Below are positions 3,734 to 28,190 of a stretch of 34,669 nt of DNA, piece after piece. The notes under the pieces are model-generated. The model was not told the origin of the DNA and ran no database searches. It saw only the letters and a list, made by a program, of their open reading frames with translations. Both the position numbers and the translations under genes were made by a program. Position 1 is the first letter of the stretch; the number at the start of each line of letters is the position of its first letter. Source of the stretch: a virus; the IMG/VR virus record IMGVR_UViG_3300045741_000211, positions 1 through 34,669 of that record; one strand, written 5' to 3'.

Positions 3734-5107
3734 TTAGTTCGTTATTAGCATAGCCCAGTTATAAACTGAGGTTTCGCCAGCTACAGAACATTTAACGCTA
3801 AAGCTTGTAGCTGCTGATATGGCTGACACATAAGGAGAGCCAATAGCTGCAGTACCCGAAATAGTCTGAGGCGAAAACGCTAACACCATATTGGTAGCTG
3901 CTGCTGTAGTGCTTACAACAACTGCTGTAACACCGTTACAGGTAAACTGTCCTGAAGTAGCTGCTGCACCACCACCCTTTACCGTAATTTTAGAGCCAGC
4001 TACAGGCTGAAGAATACCACCCTGAAAAGTAGCATTTTTAGCTTGATCTAATTTTAGTACAGATGACGGAGTAGAAGATCCATCCTGAGAGGTTAGAAAG
4101 TCTAAAGCGCCAGGCATATCATTGGAAGCACCAGGAGTTGCATCTATGGTAGCTTTAATCTGAGCAGCAGTGTCAAAAGTAGCTCCATTAGCACCCTTAA
4201 AAGAAATAAGTCCTACAGTATCTCCACTAGCAACAATCGTATCTGCTGTTCCATCAGTTGCTCTGGACTTAAGTAGGTTAAGCAATACGCCGTTTGTATC
4301 TGCTGTTCCCTGCGCCCAGGCTTGCTGAACAGTTGTGCCTGAACTTGTCAGTGTGTATTGCTGTGGCGTTCCCGCATCACCAGCAATAGAGGAAGCACCA
4401 AGAAGTAGCGCACTGTTAGCATTTTGAGAACGGCCTAGAACAAGATTGCCACCATTGGAACCATCTTGAAGGAAATTACCATTACTGTTTATAGTCCAGC
4501 GAGTGGCTGGGGTAGCACTTCCATCAGCAGAAGTTAAAAACGATAGCTTTCCAGGCATATCATTGGAAGCACCAGGAGTATTGTCTATGGTTGCAAAAAT
4601 CTGGGCAGCTTTGTCAAATGTAGCTCCGTTAGCTCCATAAAAATCTATAGAACCTACGTTATCACCAGAAGCTACAATCGTATCAGCCGATCCGTCTACT
4701 GCTCTACTTTTTAGGAACGTCATTACAGCAGCAGTAGTATCAGCAGAGCCTCTAGCTATAGACAAAGGAATACCAGCCGCAGAAAACGAATAAGCCTCAG
4801 TAGCGCCTACCGTAGTTACGTCTGCTGGCATAGCTGTTCTACCAAGAATAGCCGCATTAGAAGTAGCTGAATTTATCAAGCTAGTTCCTAGGTAGAGCGT
4901 CCTAAATTGCTTAGAGGCACTGCCAAGGTCTATAGCATTATTGCTAGAAGGAAGTAGCGTAGTTGGTAAACTACCCACAACCTTAGAGCAAATAGCCGTT
5001 GCCTGAAAAGCATTAAACATAGGCATTAGGCTAGTTGCACAAGTATCCGCCAAGGCGTTAGTAGCAAAAAGACCAAGCCCTAAAAGTACACTAAGAACTT
5101 TTTTCAT
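3734..5107 (-). CDS. Exported tail-fibre/adhesin-like protein with a duplicated domain
   Basis: A 457-residue protein that begins with a classical Sec signal peptide: KK, then a Leu/Gly-rich core, then a likely cut after NALA (about residue 20). The mature protein is Ala/Ser/Thr/Gly-rich. It carries a domain of about 100 residues twice, at about 118-215 and 265-360, 147 residues apart. Each copy reads LKSRA..G.ADTIVASGD.VG...F.GANGATFD.AAQI.ATID.TPGASNDMPG.L.FLTS.DGS.TP, a pattern seen in phage tail-spike and fibre regions. DNA for the core is identical over 29 bases between 4110-4138 and 4551-4579. The C-terminal part has few Cys and a beta-like pattern. A signal peptide on a tail-like virion-operon gene is unusual. 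It could be a cell-surface or secreted adhesin, a receptor mask, or a tail fibre that passes the membrane. Confidence 0.75.
   Translation of the reverse strand: MKKVLSVLLGLGLFATNALADTCATSLMPMFNAFQATAICSKVVGSLPTTLLPSSNNAIDLGSASKQFRTLYLGTSLINSATSNAAILGRTAMPADVTTVGATEAYSFSAAGIPLSIARGSADTTAAVMTFLKSRAVDGSADTIVASGDNVGSIDFYGANGATFDKAAQIFATIDNTPGASNDMPGKLSFLTSADGSATPATRWTINSNGNFLQDGSNGGNLVLGRSQNANSALLLGASSIAGDAGTPQQYTLTSSGTTVQQAWAQGTADTNGVLLNLLKSRATDGTADTIVASGDTVGLISFKGANGATFDTAAQIKATIDATPGASNDMPGALDFLTSQDGSSTPSSVLKLDQAKNATFQGGILQPVAGSKITVKGGGAAATSGQFTCNGVTAVVVSTTAAATNMVLAFSPQTISGTAAIGSPYVSAISAATSFSVKCSVAGETSVYNWAMLITN
4110..4579. repeat. Direct repeat, 29 bases, two copies 441 nt apart
   Basis: The same 29 bases occur at 4110-4138 and 4551-4579, inside the exported tail-like gene. 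The spacing of 441 nt is a multiple of three, so it marks an in-frame duplication of a 147-residue module. Flanking sequence is also similar but has drifted, mostly at third codon positions. Confidence 0.9.
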
Positions 5108-18695: not shown

Positions 18696-18897
18696 AGTAT
18701 TTGAATGTGAATGTTGCCACCACTTCTGCTGGATAGGACAGGAGAGATCAGCAAAAGTTGATGGTCATTATGCTGAGGTTTGCCCAAGCTGCTTTGATAA
18801 GTATAGGACTGGGCAGACGCTAACAGAGAATTTTGACGATGGCCGTTATTGGCCAGACGAGTCAGATTGGGATAATGAAATTTTAAACAATAAATAA
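18685..18897 (+). CDS. Small Cys-pair (zinc-ribbon-like) protein
   Basis: ATG at 18685, overlapping the previous stop. The frame is open further upstream to 18637, but that part lies inside the previous gene. Cys pairs ECECCHHF and CPSCF, about 24 residues apart, make a possible zinc ribbon. The C-terminus is acidic with Trp (DDGRYWPDESDWDNE). Likely a 70-residue nucleic-acid or protein-binding factor of the early operon. Confidence 0.6.
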   Translation: MSARVFECECCHHFCWIGQERSAKVDGHYAEVCPSCFDKYRTGQTLTENFDDGRYWPDESDWDNEILNNK

Positions 18898-18908
18898 GGA
18901 AAAATAAA

Positions 18909-19424
18909 ATGAACGAACCTACACCACTAAGAAATACATTTAAGGAAGCCCCACCAATGGAATACGAGGCGTTAAAACCTGGTATGCACATCTGTGGGCT
19001 TATCGAGATTAAGAACTGCCAGCGCAGAGCCTTTCAATCGGAGGAAATGATTGACGCTTTTCGTTTTGTCTTTAGAAGCTTTGATAACGAGAAGGCTTTT
19101 GTAAATCACACTGTAACAGCAACATCAGGAGAACGCAGCAATTGCTATAAAACTCTTAAAAAGATGACTGGTGGAAGCTTAGATCCTAAGTCTAGCTCTG
19201 CTGAGTTATTTGACGTAATGCAAAACAGAATAGGCCACTGGTTTACTTTGATGGTTGAACAAAAGCCGTACAAAGATGGCGTATGGGTTAATGTTGTAGA
19301 CAATACAATCCTCCCCGATACTGCTACTGATAAAAAGCTAGGCGATTGCAGAGAGTATTTTGGCAGTAGCACAGATAGTAAGCTTAAAGACCCTAAGGCT
19401 GATAACGATAATATCCCCTTTTAG
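18909..19424 (+). CDS. Putative single-stranded DNA-binding protein (acidic DNIPF tail)
   Basis: A 171-residue protein with AAGGA ahead of the ATG. A beta-rich body (GMHICGLIEIKNCQRRAFQ, then DAFRFVFRSFDNEKAFVNHTV) suggests an OB-type fold. The C-terminus is a flexible acidic stretch ending in DNDNIPF, closely like the DDDIPF tip through which bacterial SSB recruits repair and replication enzymes. It is 3 nt ahead of a second OB-like gene. Overall identity with bacterial SSB is not evident, so the call rests on the tail and context. Confidence 0.6.
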   Translation: MNEPTPLRNTFKEAPPMEYEALKPGMHICGLIEIKNCQRRAFQSEEMIDAFRFVFRSFDNEKAFVNHTVTATSGERSNCYKTLKKMTGGSLDPKSSSAELFDVMQNRIGHWFTLMVEQKPYKDGVWVNVVDNTILPDTATDKKLGDCREYFGSSTDSKLKDPKADNDNIPF

Positions 19425-20396: not shown

Positions 20397-20494
20397 AATA
20401 TTTTGTAATAATCTTACTAAGTTTTAGCTTTGCTTTTGCAGTGCTGCATCAAAGAATAGAGCAGCAGATAAGTTTAGCAGCAGGTAGAAAATGA
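20393..20494 (+). CDS. Tiny exported or membrane peptide, 33 residues
   Basis: GTG start at 20393 directly behind a strong AGGAGG site. The sequence is a hydrophobic N-terminal helix (KYFVIILLSFSFAFAVLHQR) and a polar tail. It overlaps the previous stop and, by ATGA, the following hydrolase-like gene at 20491. It may be a membrane anchor, a toxin-like peptide, or an inner-membrane partner of the next protein. The strong SD, tight overlaps and hydrophobic start argue against chance. Confidence 0.5.
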   Translation: MKYFVIILLSFSFAFAVLHQRIEQQISLAAGRK

Positions 20495-21648
20495 GCTTTA
20501 AAGCTATGCTATCTTATGGGCCGTATACCTACCCTGATTACATTCAGAGTCAAAGCACATTTAACAACGTGCAAAACAGTCCCATAGATGGCTTTACTAT
20601 GGATTTAAGAACAAATTCTGGGCAGCCCTTTAGCACTAGTGTTTGGAATACAACGGTAATAACACTTGATGATCTATCTAACTCTATAGCTCAATTACAA
20701 GATAGAAAACTACAGAACGAAAGTTATCTTTTGCACAAAGAAAATAATTGGGCATCAGCATCTACTTTTTTAGGTTATGGAAAGTGCCAATATAATTTCT
20801 GTAAGCTTCAAATCTCTGGCGTTATTATAGATCCGTTCAGTGCTGATTTTGAGAAAGTCTATAATAAGCTAGTGGTGTTGGCTCAGTTTGCAGCAGCAGT
20901 AGGTTTCTATGGAATCTGGTTTGATGTGGAGCCGTATGTTGAAATTTGGAAATATAATAATTTACCGCTAAGAAGCAAGTATACCTTTGCACAATATCAA
21001 CAAAGATATTACGAAATAGGTTATGGAATAGCTCTACAGTGGAGAAAAGCTAATCCCAACTTAAGCGTAATGACTACCTCTGCCTATGATGGCTTTGCTG
21101 GGCAAGGTTTACCCTATGAGGCTAATCAATACGGTTTATATAAAAACTTTCTTGATGGTCTATTTGATGGCTGGGGAGATTTTTATTATCGGCTTGGTGT
21201 TCGCGGTACTGGAAAAATTATAGTTACTACTGAGGGTACTTTCTCCCTAACTAATCTTCCTAACATTATTCGCTATGGCTATCGTCAGATGTCTGGTCAG
21301 TACGATAGTTATATAAATCCAGGAAACCCGCCGACTGTGTTGGGTACTCCACCGCCAGACCAAACTTATTGGGGCGGTAGTTCTTACTTTTTCGATACAA
21401 ATATAAAAGAGATAGGTTTGGCCATTTGGCCCACTGCCCCATTTTATAATCCTTTGGGGCTACCTGAAGATAACCAGTGGGCACCAGATACATTTAGAGA
21501 TGCACTAAAAACCATGATTGATTACTGCCAATGGATCTGGATTTATAATCCAGATTGGAGTTTTTACAACGGATCATCTGGTGATTTAGATCCTGTTTAT
21601 ATAGCAGCTATTGAGGAAGCTAGAGTTTATGGAAAACTGCCGGAATAA
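20491..21648 (+). CDS. TIM-barrel-like putative glycoside hydrolase
   Basis: A 385-residue protein with no signal peptide of its own. The pattern of strands each followed by polar loops (AMLSYGPYTYP, PIDGFTMDLRTN, VGFYGIWFDVEPYVEIW, LSVMTTSAYDGFAG, GKIIVTTEGTF, IGLAIWPTA) recalls a beta-alpha barrel. Acidic residues at the strand ends (FDVEPY, TTEGTF) could be catalytic. It is rich in Tyr, Trp and Asn, as carbohydrate-active enzymes often are. It is the longest protein apart from the phosphoesterase in the early operon and follows a tiny hydrophobic peptide. Host-wall or capsule-modifying activity is a guess. It differs from phage lysozymes and amidases known to me. Confidence 0.4.
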   Translation: MSFKAMLSYGPYTYPDYIQSQSTFNNVQNSPIDGFTMDLRTNSGQPFSTSVWNTTVITLDDLSNSIAQLQDRKLQNESYLLHKENNWASASTFLGYGKCQYNFCKLQISGVIIDPFSADFEKVYNKLVVLAQFAAAVGFYGIWFDVEPYVEIWKYNNLPLRSKYTFAQYQQRYYEIGYGIALQWRKANPNLSVMTTSAYDGFAGQGLPYEANQYGLYKNFLDGLFDGWGDFYYRLGVRGTGKIIVTTEGTFSLTNLPNIIRYGYRQMSGQYDSYINPGNPPTVLGTPPPDQTYWGGSSYFFDTNIKEIGLAIWPTAPFYNPLGLPEDNQWAPDTFRDALKTMIDYCQWIWIYNPDWSFYNGSSGDLDPVYIAAIEEARVYGKLPE

Positions 21649-23360: not shown

Positions 23361-23616
23361 TAATGGGATACGAGAGAAGATACTTCGGGCTTGGTTTGAA
23401 AGCGATATTTTAAAATATAGATTAAAACCTTATGGGATTGCTCTAAATCGTAAATGGTATGAATGTTTACTAAGCGAGCTACAAGCAATTCAGCGTCAGC
23501 CAGAAAATATTATGGGTGGCGTAACATATCTAAGTATGATGCTACCAAGTCAATCAGATCCCGTTCCTGTATTTTTAGTTGTGAATCTTCTAGAGGAAGT
23601 TAGGTTTTTAATATGA
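23350..23616 (+). CDS. Hypothetical 88-residue protein
   Basis: ATG at 23350 with GGAG upstream, overlapping the previous gene. The earlier frame start at 23308 lies inside that gene. A mixed helical protein (IREKILRAWFESDILKYRL, KWYECLLSELQAIQRQ). Stop and next start overlap as ATGA at 23613. Function unknown. Confidence 0.5.
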   Translation: MGNDNGIREKILRAWFESDILKYRLKPYGIALNRKWYECLLSELQAIQRQPENIMGGVTYLSMMLPSQSDPVPVFLVVNLLEEVRFLI

Positions 23617-23768
23617 GTAAAAAGCAAAAAAAATCAAAACGCAAAAATCCGGCTGATAATTTTAATGCCGATAATCCTTTAATAAAACTTCTCAAAAAGT
23701 ATGGTGTTATTCAATTTGGATCTGGTGGTCGAACTATTAAGCGTAGACTTAAATTTAAAAATGGTTAA
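23613..23768 (+). CDS. Small, very basic 51-residue protein
   Basis: ATG at 23613, overlapping the previous stop, ending inside the protease start (ATGGTTAA overlap of 8 nt). The N-terminus is a Lys/Ser cluster (MSKKQKKSKRKNPADNF) and the C-terminus is also basic (GRTIKRRLKFKNG). It could bind nucleic acid or be exported with the protease. Family unknown. Confidence 0.5.
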   Translation: MSKKQKKSKRKNPADNFNADNPLIKLLKKYGVIQFGSGGRTIKRRLKFKNG

Positions 23769-24327
23769 GAGTCTTATCTTTATCGTCTTTATCCTTGCTC
23801 GTGGCCCAGACTCGCTTAATCGTAATCAGATGGTAAATGTAGTTAGTAACGTAAGGCGACTATACCGGACTGTAGGTATAAAAATTATACCAGTTCGATA
23901 CATAGTAGCTAGGCGTGACCCAACTGCGTTTTTAGATAGTGCCTTATATGGCGCATTAGAGCGTAGAAGGTTCTGGGAGTTTTATTTAAGAAAGCATTAT
24001 CTAAAAGACAGCAGGGCACATAGGCATGTAGTATTACCGCCAGTACATTTTAATAAGGAGCTTTGGTATTATGGAGCAGCTACGGTTTGCAGTTATCGCA
24101 ACTATAATCCTTCTGTGGGTATTAGCAGCGCTACTATCAGTGACACTGCTCCAAGCACCACCGCTATAAAGTCTATGATTCCTATAGCTCACGAGATAGG
24201 ACACGCTATTGGGGCTAGTCATGACGATACTAATCACAATATTATGAACTCTGGCGCAGGGCAGTTTTGGGCTGAGCCGTTAGGGTTTAATGAGAACGCT
24301 TTAAGAGAGTTTGAGGAATGTTTATAA
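23761..24327 (+). CDS. Exported metzincin-type zinc metalloprotease
   Basis: I choose ATG at 23761 (188 residues) because it overlaps the preceding stop (ATGGTTAA) and gives a proper signal-like start (MVKSLIFIVFILARG). Upstream in-frame Met at 23701 lies in the preceding gene. The zinc motif HExxHxxGxxH is complete: HEIGHAIGASH (144-154), followed by a Met-turn candidate NHNIMNS (Met 162). This combination is diagnostic of the metzincin clan, and the H-x-D after the third His resembles matrixins and related small archaeal/bacterial proteases. The first 100 residues form a fold typical of a metzincin upper domain. No propeptide with a Cys switch is visible. Exported, it could act on periplasmic or cell-surface proteins. 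Confidence in the catalytic call is high, the target is unknown. Confidence 0.85.
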   Translation: MVKSLIFIVFILARGPDSLNRNQMVNVVSNVRRLYRTVGIKIIPVRYIVARRDPTAFLDSALYGALERRRFWEFYLRKHYLKDSRAHRHVVLPPVHFNKELWYYGAATVCSYRNYNPSVGISSATISDTAPSTTAIKSMIPIAHEIGHAIGASHDDTNHNIMNSGAGQFWAEPLGFNENALREFEECL

Positions 24328-24403
24328 TGTTGGGTAGCATAACTGGTAATGTGCCTGACTGTTAATCAGGAGTATGGGGGTTCGATTCCCTCCCCAACAG
24401 CCA
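24328..24403 (+). tRNA. tRNA-Asn (anticodon GTT), CCA encoded
   Basis: Full cloverleaf: acceptor TGTTGGG (24328-24334) pairs perfectly with CCCAACA (24393-24399). The D stem is GCAT/ATGT with the GG of the loop. The anticodon stem CCTGA/TCAGG holds loop CTGTTAA, anticodon GTT (Asn). The T stem is GGGGG/CCCTC with one G-U pair and loop TTCGATT. Discriminator G and encoded CCA end at 24403. It starts directly after the protease stop. Confidence 0.95.
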
Positions 24404-24481: not shown

Positions 24482-26257
24482 ATGCCAAACGCCAAAAGGT
24501 TCCAGCAACTCAGCCGAAATGTTTTTAAGATAACTATCCCTATAGTAGTCCGTAAGGATTGGGAGTCCTGGGTACTACTCACCTCAGACCAGCACTGGGA
24601 CAATCCTAAATCAAACCATAAGTTACAGCTAAAACATTTAGAGGAAGCAAAAGAGAGAGATGCTTCAATAATTTCTGCTGGAGATTTTTTCTGTGCTATG
24701 CAGGGGAAATATGACAGAAGGGCTAATAAGACAGCATTAAGGCCAGAGCATAGGTCTGATGACTACTTTGATTCTCTAATAGAGACAGCATCAAACTTCT
24801 TTGCCCCCTATGCTCATAATTTCTTTTTAATTGGTATGGGCAATCATGAAGCTTCTATCGTTGATAGGCATGAGACTAATTTAATAGAAAGATTAGTAGC
24901 GGTACTAAATAACAAAACCAAATCTAAAATTTTCTCCGGTGGTTTTTCTGGCTGGATAATTTTTACCTTTATGCGACATGACAATAAGCAGTGCGGCAGT
25001 ATCGTACTGCACTATGATCATGGCTATGGCGGAGGTGGCCCTGTGACGGCAGACATGATTCAGCATCAGCGAAGGTCTGTTTATCTTCCTGATGCTGACA
25101 TCATTCTTAGTGGGCACTGTTTTTCTGAAGATACCGAGATTCTTACGCCAGAGGGTTGGAAGTTTCATCAAGAGATTACTGAGCATAGCTGTGTAGCTAC
25201 GATGAATAAAACTAATAAAACACTGGAATGGCAGCAAGTTAATAGCATTTTTAAATATGACCATTTCAAAGAGATGCATAGTTTTGAGAACAGCAAAGTT
25301 AATTTACTTGTTACATCTGAACATGGAATGATTTTTGAAAAATATAGGGATAAAGAATTAGTAGAACTTCCCGCAAAAGATACTAATAAGATACCAGAAT
25401 TATGTTGGTTGCATGGAGCTTTGGATACAATCCCAGATTTTAATATCTGTGATGATACCCTTAGATTACTTACCTGGATTGTGGCTGATGGTTGTATAGA
25501 AGATGGCGGTATAAGATTCCATTTTTCTAAACAAAGAAAAATAAATAAAATTAAAAAACTTTGTGCCTCCTTAGACATTCCCTTTACTAGTCATGTCCAA
25601 AATACAGGTAATACAAAAATTAGAATTGGCGTAGCCTACGCAACTTCCTTTATTGACCTACTAGAGGGTGTAAAGGAGCTTCCTACCAGTTTCATTAAAA
25701 ACCTAAGCGGCAGACAGGCCCAGATAGTTTTGGAGGAATATCGTTTAAGTGATGGGCAGTTTGAGAATAGTGTTATTAGCTGGCAGCTTTATAGTTTTAA
25801 TAAACAAAATATAAATGTTCTACAAGCTTTAGCAGTAAAGGCGGGTTTTCGTGGTCTGTGCTCTAATGAAACTATTTTAAATATTTGTCCCAAGCATACT
25901 TCATTTGAAGCAAGAATAGAATCTAGGGTAGTGCCCTATTCTGGTATCGCTTGGTGTGTGAGTGTTCCCAATGGAACATTAATAGTACGGCGAAAAGGAA
26001 AGGCTGTCATAACACAGAACACACATGATAGTTGGATGAGAGAAATTGCTAGGATTAGGCTCACACAGCATGGGGGCTTAAAACAGGATGTCCAGACACA
26101 TTTAAAGCTACCTAGCTATAAAGATGACTATGTAGATGGGCATGGGGGCTGGGCTGTTACTAAGGGCTTTCCTCCCAAACCTCTTGGTGCATACTGGCTT
26201 AAATTTTCGTATGATGTAAAAGAGTCTAGGGTAGTTTATCAGATAGTGAAGGCATGA
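24482..26257 (+). CDS. Calcineurin-like metallophosphoesterase interrupted by an intein
   Basis: A 591-residue precursor. The host protein (290 residues after splicing) has the five metallophosphoesterase motifs: DQH (36-38), GDFF (67-70), GNHE (120-123), LHYDH (176-180), and a final GH-x-H. The last motif is split: G211-H212 ends the N-extein and T514-H515 begins the C-extein, giving GHTH after splicing. Residues 213-513 are an intein. Substrate could be DNA, nucleotide or phosphoprotein. It follows the tRNA and lies near the end of the early operon. Without splicing the last metal-binding His is displaced by 301 residues, so activity should depend on splicing. Confidence 0.88.
   Translation: MPNAKRFQQLSRNVFKITIPIVVRKDWESWVLLTSDQHWDNPKSNHKLQLKHLEEAKERDASIISAGDFFCAMQGKYDRRANKTALRPEHRSDDYFDSLIETASNFFAPYAHNFFLIGMGNHEASIVDRHETNLIERLVAVLNNKTKSKIFSGGFSGWIIFTFMRHDNKQCGSIVLHYDHGYGGGGPVTADMIQHQRRSVYLPDADIILSGHCFSEDTEILTPEGWKFHQEITEHSCVATMNKTNKTLEWQQVNSIFKYDHFKEMHSFENSKVNLLVTSEHGMIFEKYRDKELVELPAKDTNKIPELCWLHGALDTIPDFNICDDTLRLLTWIVADGCIEDGGIRFHFSKQRKINKIKKLCASLDIPFTSHVQNTGNTKIRIGVAYATSFIDLLEGVKELPTSFIKNLSGRQAQIVLEEYRLSDGQFENSVISWQLYSFNKQNINVLQALAVKAGFRGLCSNETILNICPKHTSFEARIESRVVPYSGIAWCVSVPNGTLIVRRKGKAVITQNTHDSWMREIARIRLTQHGGLKQDVQTHLKLPSYKDDYVDGHGGWAVTKGFPPKPLGAYWLKFSYDVKESRVVYQIVKA
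25118..26020 (+). mobile_element. Intein with LAGLIDADG homing endonuclease in GHTH motif
   Basis: 301 codons (precursor residues 213-513). Block A starts with Cys213 (CFSEDTEILTPEGW). Block B is VTSEHGM with Thr278 and His281. The endonuclease has two LAGLIDADG-type motifs: LLTWIVADG (329-337) and VLEEYRLSDG (415-424). Block F is YSGIAWCVSVPNG, and block G is KAVITQN before Thr514. The penultimate residue is Gln where most inteins have His, and the +1 nucleophile is Thr. DNA borders are 25118 and 26020. Confidence 0.9.
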
Positions 26258-26589
26258 CATTTTTCCCCTGGGATAATACTGTTGGGTTAGGCTCCTGGCC
26301 TTTTAGAATACAGCTTGCGCCAGACCATCCTTTTTATGGGCCTTATCGGGTTCATGATGCTGAGTATCAATTAATCAAAGAGGGTAAAGCCAAGAAGAAT
26401 TTACATGCTATTGATCTAGATTTTCTTAATGATTGTCTAAGAAATGCTGCTTCCTGTGATTTGTATATAGATAAGATAGCACTGATAGACCAAGCCTATA
26501 TGATGTATGGCATCTGTCGATTATGGGCAAAGTATGTAAGGCCTACGTTTGAGGCCTGGCAGCCTGGAGAACCTGCGCCTACCCTTTAG
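26254..26589 (+). CDS. Hypothetical protein, DUF1353-like pattern
   Basis: A 111-residue protein, overlapping the phosphoesterase stop by 4 nt (ATGA). The sequence has PFYGPYRVHDAEYQLIKEGKA with an HD pair, then an acidic helix (DLDFLNDCLRNA) and MMYGICRLWAKYVRP. That HD...D..F..A...MY...R pattern recalls a small phage family (DUF1353-like) of unknown function. It is the last rightward gene and overlaps the holin-like gene on the other strand by 11 bases. Confidence 0.5.
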   Translation: MTFFPWDNTVGLGSWPFRIQLAPDHPFYGPYRVHDAEYQLIKEGKAKKNLHAIDLDFLNDCLRNAASCDLYIDKIALIDQAYMMYGICRLWAKYVRPTFEAWQPGEPAPTL

Positions 26590-26794
26590 GGGCTAGTGCG
26601 GCATGGGCCACACCTACAGCGCCTAAGGCAGCAGCAAACTGCACTGGATTAAGACCTACTAAGCTAGTTAGCTGGTTTAATAGTGCTACAACTGGAGCCA
26701 ATTGAGGAAACTGCGATAGCACTAGAATAGCTATAGCAATTGCTCTTTTGACACCGTTGCTCTGTGTTAGTTTCGATAGTAGTGACATAGACAT
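26579..26794 (-). CDS. Holin-like small membrane protein
   Basis: A 71-residue protein with two hydrophobic stretches, about 16-34 (RAIAIAILVLSQF) and 52-68 (VQFAAALGAVGVAHAAL). A short basic start and a polar C-terminus fit a small phage holin, which would form the membrane lesion at lysis. It is the last gene of the leftward operon, next to the endolysin candidate. No dual-start motif is evident beyond Met1 and Met3. The holin call comes from topology and position. Confidence 0.55.
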   Translation of the reverse strand: MSMSLLSKLTQSNGVKRAIAIAILVLSQFPQLAPVVALLNQLTSLVGLNPVQFAAALGAVGVAHAALAPKG

Positions 26795-27826
26795 TTACCC
26801 CTGAAAAAAGCCTGTACGAAAAACAGGATGTACAGGCCCATACAGCTTATTATTTGCTTTAAAAACAACCCAGGGAGAACCTGAGAGCGCCTTGGCTTTA
26901 TCAGCTATCTGAAAGCCGTACATCTTTAGGCCATTTGGCGTACCGCTATAGTAGCGCCACATGCCCCCTAGAAAACTACCATAAAGCGGAAAACTACCAA
27001 CAAGTTGTTTATCATGTGTCAAAATATCGACATGGTTAGCCCGCTCAGGGATAATTAAACAAGGCTTATTTGCCCTGCTATCCACGCCATTGTCCTCGCT
27101 ATGCGTCTTATATAGAGAGGGCTTGGTTAGTACTAGGCTGGGGGCAAAAAAAGCTGGTGGTGGGCCTTTAGGCTCGAATAAACGTAGTACGCTTATAATG
27201 TAGTTGGCGGAAGGGGGGTTTTTCCTGTCTGGTGGTGGGGTAGCGTTACCAGCAGTAGAGAGGTTAAACCTAGCACCCCAGCCAAAGACTATATCAGCAA
27301 ACTTGTTCTTATTTATCCAAGCTTCTGCGTCAATATCAAACAAGGATTGACCGTCAGTAGAAGCTATCTGGCCAAGTCCAGCAGTAGCGTTTTTGCCATG
27401 TTCCTCCGTCATAACCCCAGGTATAGCAGGACTACCCATAGGAGCCTGAACCGGAATACAGCTAGGACAAAGCTGCTTAACTAAATCAACTCTCTTTTGT
27501 ACATTGGTTACTGATGATTCACTGTATTCACAGGAGTGAGAAACATAGACTTTTACGTTTGGAAACTGTTTAGCCAGCCCCTCCCAGCGAGGAAGCTTTT
27601 TATTTAGAAAGTCCAAAGGAACAATCTTATGCCCATAGTCCCACCAGATATGACCACGCACAGCAGCAACCTTGCCAGAATTTATAAGAGTAATTAGGTG
27701 TGGCATGACATCACCAAAGGTGTTATCAAAGCAACCTATGGCTGTACCAGCAGGAAAAGAATTAAGAGTCTCGTTTACGTTCCAAGACTTATTGCCCAAG
27801 CCTAAAAGGTCTAGTCCGACTAACAT
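26795..27826 (-). CDS. Putative endolysin or glycoside-hydrolase-like protein of unknown family
   Basis: A 343-residue protein with a good SD (GAGG) ahead of ATG 27826. Strand-like segments followed by polar residues (VAAVRGHIWWDYGH, VKVYVSHSCEYSESS, GQSLFDIDAEAWIN, FADIVFGWGARFN) look like a beta-alpha barrel. The last 120 residues look like a beta domain (VFKANNKLYGPVHPV). There is no signal peptide. It sits directly before the holin-like gene, the usual place of an endolysin, but no known lysozyme, amidase or endopeptidase motif is seen. Residues HIWWDYGH and DIDAEAW could be catalytic. Alternative: a tail-associated or surface-directed hydrolase. Confidence 0.45.
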   Translation of the reverse strand: MLVGLDLLGLGNKSWNVNETLNSFPAGTAIGCFDNTFGDVMPHLITLINSGKVAAVRGHIWWDYGHKIVPLDFLNKKLPRWEGLAKQFPNVKVYVSHSCEYSESSVTNVQKRVDLVKQLCPSCIPVQAPMGSPAIPGVMTEEHGKNATAGLGQIASTDGQSLFDIDAEAWINKNKFADIVFGWGARFNLSTAGNATPPPDRKNPPSANYIISVLRLFEPKGPPPAFFAPSLVLTKPSLYKTHSEDNGVDSRANKPCLIIPERANHVDILTHDKQLVGSFPLYGSFLGGMWRYYSGTPNGLKMYGFQIADKAKALSGSPWVVFKANNKLYGPVHPVFRTGFFQG

Positions 27827-27923: not shown

Positions 27924-28190
27924 TCACCTTCTGCTCTTTCCTTCTAAAAGTCTATCAAGTTTATACTCTATAGATCCTAATCGACGATCCATCTCAACCC
28001 ACCTTATAGTTGATTCAGATTCCAGCTTTGTAAATCTAGTCAGATTTTCTGTGGTTACATTCTCTTGTTGAGAAACTCTATTCTCTATCCCATCAATCCA
28101 GTGCTTAACACTAAATGTAAAGTAAGATGAGAGGATGCCCAACGCTAATAGCGCAGCACTAAATAAATTTATAGAACCTCTGAGTGTCAT
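27924..28190 (-). CDS. Membrane-anchored coiled-coil protein (spanin/XhlA-like)
   Basis: An 88-residue protein: one membrane helix near the N-terminus (about 8-26, NLFSAALLALGILSSYFTF), then a soluble helix with coiled-coil-like spacing (ENRVSQQENVTTENLTRFTKLES, MDRRLGSIEYKLDRLLEG). This is the layout of inner-membrane spanins and of XhlA-type lysis-accessory proteins. It is followed by the endolysin candidate and holin-like genes. No overlapping outer-membrane spanin lipoprotein gene was found here. The role in lysis is inferred from layout and position. Confidence 0.55.
   Translation of the reverse strand: MTLRGSINLFSAALLALGILSSYFTFSVKHWIDGIENRVSQQENVTTENLTRFTKLESESTIRWVEMDRRLGSIEYKLDRLLEGKSRR

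What the first reader, a model, noticed from the sequence alone, without database searches (positions are those of the whole stretch)
23761..24327. Secreted metzincin zinc protease encoded by a phage
The complete HExxHxxGxxH motif (HEIGHAIGASH), a Met-turn candidate (NHNIM) and a signal-like N-terminus are visible. Metzincins are common in cells but unusual in phage early/middle operons. Location between small early genes and a tRNA suggests expression before lysis. Possible roles: cutting surface proteins to exclude other phages, degrading matrix to help release, or processing an exported phage protein such as the one at 3734-5107.
Basis: partly seen in the sequence, partly recalled or inferred. 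Interest (0 to 1): 0.8.

Follow-up and report, generated by a model that had tools for sequence, protein, structure and literature searches.

The report
Phage gene for adamalysin-like zinc protease
This virus of an unknown bacterium carries a small zinc-dependent protein-cutting enzyme with the fold of snake-venom proteases; relatives in other uncultivated phages mostly carry export signals and travel with a sugar-cutting-type enzyme found beside cell-bursting genes, so it probably helps break down the host's outer layers.

Summary
In detail: 23761-24327 (+) encodes a 188-aa protein with HEIGHAIGASHD and a Met-turn; Pfam Reprolysin_5 and _2 pass their cut-offs, and an AlphaFold model matches adamalysin II along its whole length (Z 15.6). 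It is a metzincin, closest to M12B. No relative exists in 50,697 phage records, but IMG/VR holds a small phage family (about ten lineages) under purifying selection. Most other lineages carry a Sec-type signal peptide before that strand; this protein and its neighbour in G004 do not, so export of this copy is unproven. The gene is accessory: a sister phage lost it, leaving a remnant. Every metzincin-bearing contig of 17 kb or more also carries a second unnamed family (window 26795-27826), a predicted TIM-barrel glycosidase, which in other phages adjoins lysozyme, transglycosylase and holin-like genes. Most likely role: an auxiliary envelope-acting protease that works with the glycosidase to weaken the host surface for lysis or release, resembling the Listeria prophage metzincin Mtz. 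Receptor shaving (superinfection exclusion) is the main rival. Substrate, host and activity are untested.

The parts
23761..24327 (+). metzincin zinc protease, M12B/adamalysin-like, 188 aa
   Evidence: Pfam Reprolysin_5/_2 above cut-off; AF2 model and Z 15.6 to adamalysin II
24190..24225 (+). zinc-binding and catalytic motif HEIGHAIGASHD (H144, E145, H148, H154)
   Evidence: H144, E145, G147, H148, H154 invariant in the family alignment; on helix 131-149
24235..24249 (+). Met-turn region with Met162
   Evidence: Met162 invariant in ten family members
   Evidence: DSSP on the model E8-12; aligns with the post-signal-peptide strand of relatives
23613..23768 (+). 51-aa ORF overlapping the protease start by 8 bases; resembles the N-terminus of the phage's own major head protein
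   Evidence: phrog_9953 E 0.0024; local score 67 against shuffles 26.5 +/- 4.3
24328..24403 (+). tRNA-Asn (GTT), directly after the protease stop codon
   Evidence: ARAGORN
24482..26257 (+). gene with DNA repair exonuclease/metallophosphatase-like N-terminus, with an apparent intein inside; its homologue is the next gene after the protease in G004
   Evidence: phrog_7339 E 4.1e-9 plus intein-type matches; synteny
26254..26589 (+). unnamed small gene, neighbour of the protease also in G004
   Evidence: 40.8% identity to the G004 gene
26579..26794 (-). short hydrophobic protein, holin-like by sequence only
   Evidence: no family match; homologue beside the TIM-barrel gene in G014
26795..27826 (-). 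TIM-barrel, glycoside-hydrolase-like protein ('fam2') that accompanies the protease family
   Evidence: AF2 pLDDT 85.7; Z up to 13.4 to GH5 enzymes; co-occurrence
27924..28190 (-). small protein with one N-terminal membrane-like segment followed by a coiled-coil-like tail (by reading the sequence)
   Evidence: sequence; 50% identical homologue in G004

Best explanation
The gene encodes a single-domain zinc endopeptidase of the metzincin clan, closest to M12B (adamalysin/reprolysin), belonging to a phage-specific accessory family. Shown by computation: the fold, the zinc site, the Met-turn, purifying selection in relatives, dispensability, and occurrence in phages that carry a TIM-barrel glycosidase-like protein found in lysis-type modules. 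Inferred: the protease acts on proteins of the host envelope or surface, together with that glycosidase, to weaken the surface for lysis, release or spread of virions. In most lineages it would be exported by a Sec signal peptide. The window and G004 versions lack a separate signal peptide and would either use their short hydrophobic N-terminus as a poor signal or build up in the cytosol and reach their substrate once holin or lysis opens the membrane.
For: Pfam Reprolysin_5/_2 above cut-off; Reprolysin_5 above cut-off in the L004 homologue; AF2 model with active-site helix 131-149; adamalysin II Z 15.6, 170 residues aligned over 1-188; Foldseek 2aig E 9.4e-8; profile search against PDB sequences, trimerelysin II E 1.5e-8. 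Family found in about ten phage lineages, dN/dS 0.07-0.15. Signal peptides ending ASA, AVA, AEA or CYA before strand 1 in relatives (read). All metzincin-positive contigs of 17 kb or more also carry fam2; among 11 fam2 loci found without regard to the protease 3 have it, against 0 of 47 comparison loci, Fisher p 0.005. fam2 lies next to lysozyme-like, lytic-transglycosylase-like, holin-like or lipoprotein genes in G014, G010, L156, L164, L166 and has a signal peptide in G010. Sister phages G001/G002 lack the gene, and G002 keeps a remnant. Precedent: Listeria prophage-derived Mtz-Tim sensitises cells to lysins and raises virion release (PMC8235301).
Against: No substrate, activity or host is known. 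In the window the gene is on the opposite strand to the lysis-type genes and about 2.5 kb away, in an early-type operon; in G010, G014, L153 and G015 it is far from lysis genes or among head/terminase genes. The window copy has no separate signal peptide. fam2 function is inferred from fold only, with low Foldseek TM-scores. The co-occurrence partly reflects shared ancestry of these phages, and most loci were +/-8 to 10 kb stretches. No Tim-like lipoprotein partner lies next to the protease.
Confidence: 0.45

Rival explanations
1. Superinfection exclusion by receptor shaving: made early, the protease cuts host surface proteins that serve as receptors, keeping out other phages and stopping progeny from sticking to debris.
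For: Early/middle-type operon in the window, G010 and G014; signal peptides in most relatives; accessory and found at varied genome positions.
Against: The window copy lacks a clear signal peptide; no exclusion protein of this type was found in the papers searched; the link with a lysis-module glycosidase is not predicted by this idea.
Confidence: 0.25
2. Cytosolic phage protease: in the window/G004 branch the signal peptide was lost and the enzyme cuts an intracellular host protein, for example a defence protein or repressor.
For: Only 7 and 11 residues precede strand 1 in the window and G004 copies; the G004 start codon is supported by an ATGA overlap with the upstream gene.
Against: The central and C-terminal Cys seen in relatives are kept (alignment), as expected for an oxidised, extracytoplasmic protein; the rest of the family looks exported; PADLOC gives no match.
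Confidence: 0.15
3. Lysogenic-conversion or public-good enzyme: cargo that benefits the host or its community by degrading external protein.
For: Accessory; several relatives (G001-G003, G005, G006) carry a tyrosine integrase; scattered genome positions.
Confidence: 0.1
4. Processing of an exported phage protein such as the tail-fibre-like protein at 3734-5107.
For: That protein has a signal-peptide-like N-terminus, matches tail fibre PHROGs and has a K1-lyase C-terminal domain.
Against: Nothing links the two genes in position or co-occurrence; the protease is absent from sister phages that otherwise keep the gene order.
Confidence: 0.05

Closest known systems
M12B adamalysin/reprolysin metzincins (adamalysin II, trimerelysin II, BaP1)
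   Same: Catalytic fold along the full length (Z 15.6), HExxHxxGxxHD, Met-turn, Pfam Reprolysin models above cut-off
   Different: No propeptide or extra domains; about 16% identity; phage gene; two conserved Cys whose correspondence to the M12B disulfide was not resolved
Listeria prophage-derived metzincin Mtz with lipoprotein Tim (PMC8235301)
   Same: Phage-associated, accessory, small secreted metzincin; linked there to sensitivity to lysins and virion release
   Different: Mtz is paired with an adjacent Tim lipoprotein and in prophages often lies after holin-lysin in Gram-positive hosts; here no Tim-like neighbour, different partner (TIM-barrel protein), window copy without separate signal peptide; sequences not compared directly
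Other phage metzincins: matrixin-type of Maribacter phage Colly_1; L014/L015/L023/L025, L035, L066/L067
   Same: Phage-encoded HExxHxxGxxH proteases
   Different: Outside this family by profile score (about 1e-6 to 5e-3 against 1e-61 or better for full-length members); different architectures
Fragilysin / karilysin-type bacterial metzincins
   Same: Same clan; weaker structural and profile matches
   Different: NCBIfam fragilysin score 20.4 against a cut-off of 190.7

Membership tests
Metzincin clan | HExxHxxGxxH/D zinc motif | tested here: met
   HEIGHAIGASHD; H, E, H, H invariant in the family
Metzincin clan | Met-turn after the third zinc ligand | tested here: met
   Met162 invariant in ten members
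Metzincin clan | Metzincin fold with active-site helix | tested here: met
   Model pTM 0.77, helix 131-149; Z 15.6 to adamalysin II
Metzincin clan | Zinc binding and proteolysis | not testable with these tools
   needs purified protein
M12B (reprolysin/adamalysin) | Sequence match to reprolysin catalytic-domain models above curated cut-off | tested here: met
   Reprolysin_5 32.6 (27), Reprolysin_2 28.8 (27); Reprolysin_3, _4 and PF01421 below cut-off
M12B (reprolysin/adamalysin) | Disulfide joining the central loop to the C-terminal helix | tested here: inconclusive
   C-terminal Cys nearly invariant and a central Cys in most members; pairing and correspondence not resolved
ADAM/venom subfamilies of M12B | Latency propeptide before the catalytic domain | tested here: not met
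   Catalytic strand 1 begins at residue 8; not filed as an ADAM or venom-type enzyme
Secreted (Sec) protein | Separate cleavable signal peptide before the mature domain | tested here: inconclusive
   7 residues before strand 1 in the window, 11 in G004, clearly longer signal-type leaders in most other lineages; no signal-peptide predictor available
Listeria Mtz-Tim system | Adjacent Tim lipoprotein | tested here: not met
   Neighbours are a 51-aa head-protein fragment, tRNA-Asn and the exonuclease-like gene
Listeria Mtz-Tim system | Sequence relationship to Mtz | not tested
   Mtz sequence was not fetched
Glycoside hydrolase (fam2 partner, 26795-27826) | TIM-barrel glycosidase fold | tested here: inconclusive
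   Z 13.4 over 206 residues to a GH5 enzyme, but low Foldseek TM-scores; catalytic acids not assigned

The most novel reading that the evidence does not exclude
A previously undescribed two-enzyme surface-demolition kit of uncultivated phages: an adamalysin-like protease that occurs only with a new TIM-barrel glycosidase family of lysis modules, together opening a protein- or glycoprotein-rich envelope layer, with a branch (this window) that dropped its export signal and relies on lysis for release.
Probability: 0.25. Interest if true: 0.65.

Novelty: new variant of a known kind. Interest (0 to 1): 0.45.

Why it matters
Phage lysis is usually described with holins, endolysins and spanins; a dedicated phage protease acting on the envelope is documented in one Gram-positive prophage-derived pair. 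A conserved, accessory protease family in diverse phage lineages, tied to a new lysis-module glycosidase-like protein, would point to host surface layers whose protein part must be cut, and offers a small enzyme that can be expressed and tested directly.

Tried and rejected
INPHARED searches with the window protein, the L004 protein and fam2: no match. Viral scan with the window protein alone: no relative; the alignment and motif pattern succeeded. Bacterial genome scan: two short local hits, not family members. Host search with fam2 in 398 genomes of one bacterial phylum: nothing, uninformative without a positive control. Longer start at 23701 (208 aa): rejected, it adds an acidic stretch without signal features and overlaps the upstream ORF by 68 bases. 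The idea that the protease belongs to the module around the exonuclease-like gene: rejected, 0 of 47 other loci with that gene carry it. PADLOC: no match. Promoter-like sites were no more frequent than in shuffles; terminator-like sites were more frequent (14 vs 8.1) but gave no clear operon boundary, so the operon structure is inferred from gene order only.

Full report
The window is a whole IMG/VR virus record of 34,669 bases. Terminase, portal and major head protein identify it as a tailed phage, but no close relative exists in 50,697 phage records: the terminase matches at about 33% identity and the portal more weakly. The host is unknown.

The observation. ORF 23761-24327 (+) gives 188 aa with HEIGHAIGASHD and a Met-turn. 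The strict motif is absent from 300 simulated windows. Pfam Reprolysin_5 and Reprolysin_2 pass their curated cut-offs. PHROGs has no such family. The AlphaFold model made with eight family members has pLDDT 70.8 and pTM 0.77. Foldseek gives adamalysin II at E 9.4e-8, and VIA-align gives Z 15.6, rmsd 3.0, 170 residues aligned, spanning 1-188. A profile of the family finds trimerelysin II at E 1.5e-8. Fold and active site are thus well supported; zinc binding and proteolysis are inferred.

The family. A sister phage (L004/G003, terminase 67% identical) carries a homologue. Alignment and motif scans of IMG/VR add G004 to G015, and a search through a neighbouring gene adds the divergent L153, L164 and L165. 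dN/dS is 0.07-0.15, so the gene is kept for its protein. In G004 the zinc motif has Glu in place of the Gly (HEIGHLLEASHD), and L164/L165 have one extra residue.

Signal peptide. Most relatives have a Sec-type signal peptide followed by a hydrophobic strand (A-x-G-P-x-S ending in the closest ones). In the window the hydrophobic stretch is that strand itself: the model has strand 8-12, and the structural alignment begins at residue 1 on adamalysin residue 2. Only 7 residues precede it, and 11 in G004, where the start codon is supported by an ATGA overlap with the upstream gene.

Accessory nature. In G003, G005 and G006 the gene lies between a small gene and 'fam39'. G002 has both flanks with a 133-base gap that still holds sequence matching the start of the protease gene, so the gene was most likely lost there; G001 also lacks it. 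Elsewhere it sits in early-type operons (window, G010, G014), next to the TIM-barrel gene (G007-G009, G011, G012), before the terminase (G015) or between structural genes (L153).

The partner. Window 26795-27826 belongs to an unnamed family (fam2) without Pfam or significant PHROG match. Its model (pLDDT 85.7) is a TIM barrel plus a beta-rich C-terminal part, closest to GH5-type enzymes by VIA-align (Z 13.4 over 206 residues) and GH29 by Foldseek, with low TM-scores. fam2 is next to lysozyme-like, lytic-transglycosylase-like, holin-like or lipoprotein genes in several phages (those labels rest partly on reading the sequences) and has a signal peptide in G010. Every metzincin-positive contig of 17 kb or more also has fam2, while G001, G002 and other phages have fam2 alone. 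Among 11 fam2 loci found independently of the protease 3 have it, against 0 of 47 loci holding the exonuclease-like gene (Fisher p 0.005). Shared descent inflates such counts, so this is a lead.

Mechanism. The best-supported reading is an auxiliary protease that acts on host envelope or surface proteins together with the glycosidase-like protein, helping lysis, release or spread (confidence 0.45 for this role; the enzyme identity is far more certain). The precedent is the Listeria metzincin Mtz of phage origin, which with Tim sensitises cells to phage lysins and increases virion release (PMC8235301). Receptor shaving for superinfection exclusion fits the early operon and is the main rival. 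A cytosolic role in the window/G004 branch is possible.

Comparison. It is a metzincin by every feature that could be tested. Within the clan it is closest to M12B, but it lacks the propeptide of ADAM and venom enzymes and is not filed among them. It works, in the proposed reading, like Listeria Mtz, but the Tim partner is absent and the sequences were not compared. Novelty: a new phage family and gene pairing of a known kind of enzyme.

Noticed in passing
window 23613-23768 (+): A 51-aa ORF just before the protease is a partial copy of the N-terminus of the phage's own major head protein (score 67 against shuffles 26.5 +/- 4.3). Relic, or a capsid-interfering peptide?
   Followed up: partly
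window 24482-26257 (+): Exonuclease/metallophosphatase-like gene interrupted by an apparent intein with homing-endonuclease-like sequence (phrog matches to intein-bearing thymidylate synthase and ribonucleotide reductase).
   Followed up: no
window 26795-27826 (-): TIM-barrel family without Pfam or significant PHROG match, placed in lysis-type modules of many uncultivated phages.
   Followed up: partly
window 3734-5107 (-); homologues in G005 and G012: Tail-fibre-like protein with a signal-peptide-like N-terminus and a K1-lyase C-terminal domain; other virion-region proteins in relatives also begin with signal-peptide-like sequences, odd for virion parts.
   Followed up: no
G001/G002 (L138, L140 about 18836-18968): Gap where sister phages carry the metzincin; the G002 gap holds a remnant of its start, with repeated and inverted GGCAAGG-type motifs.
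   Followed up: partly
L011/G014 2360-2976: Homologue with signal peptide whose reading frame is broken in the contig; real or an assembly error is unknown.
   Followed up: no
L066, L067, L014, L015, L023, L025, L035: Unrelated phage metzincins: one with a twin-arginine-like signal near the same exonuclease-like gene, others with a membrane anchor or a peptidoglycan-binding-like domain, by reading the sequences.
   Followed up: no
window 24328-24403 and L002 164-239: tRNA-Asn(GTT) directly abuts the protease stop codon; a sister phage also carries a tRNA-Asn.
   Followed up: no
window 20491-21648 (+): 385-aa protein of unknown family in the early-type operon, with only a weak TIM-barrel hint.
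   Followed up: no
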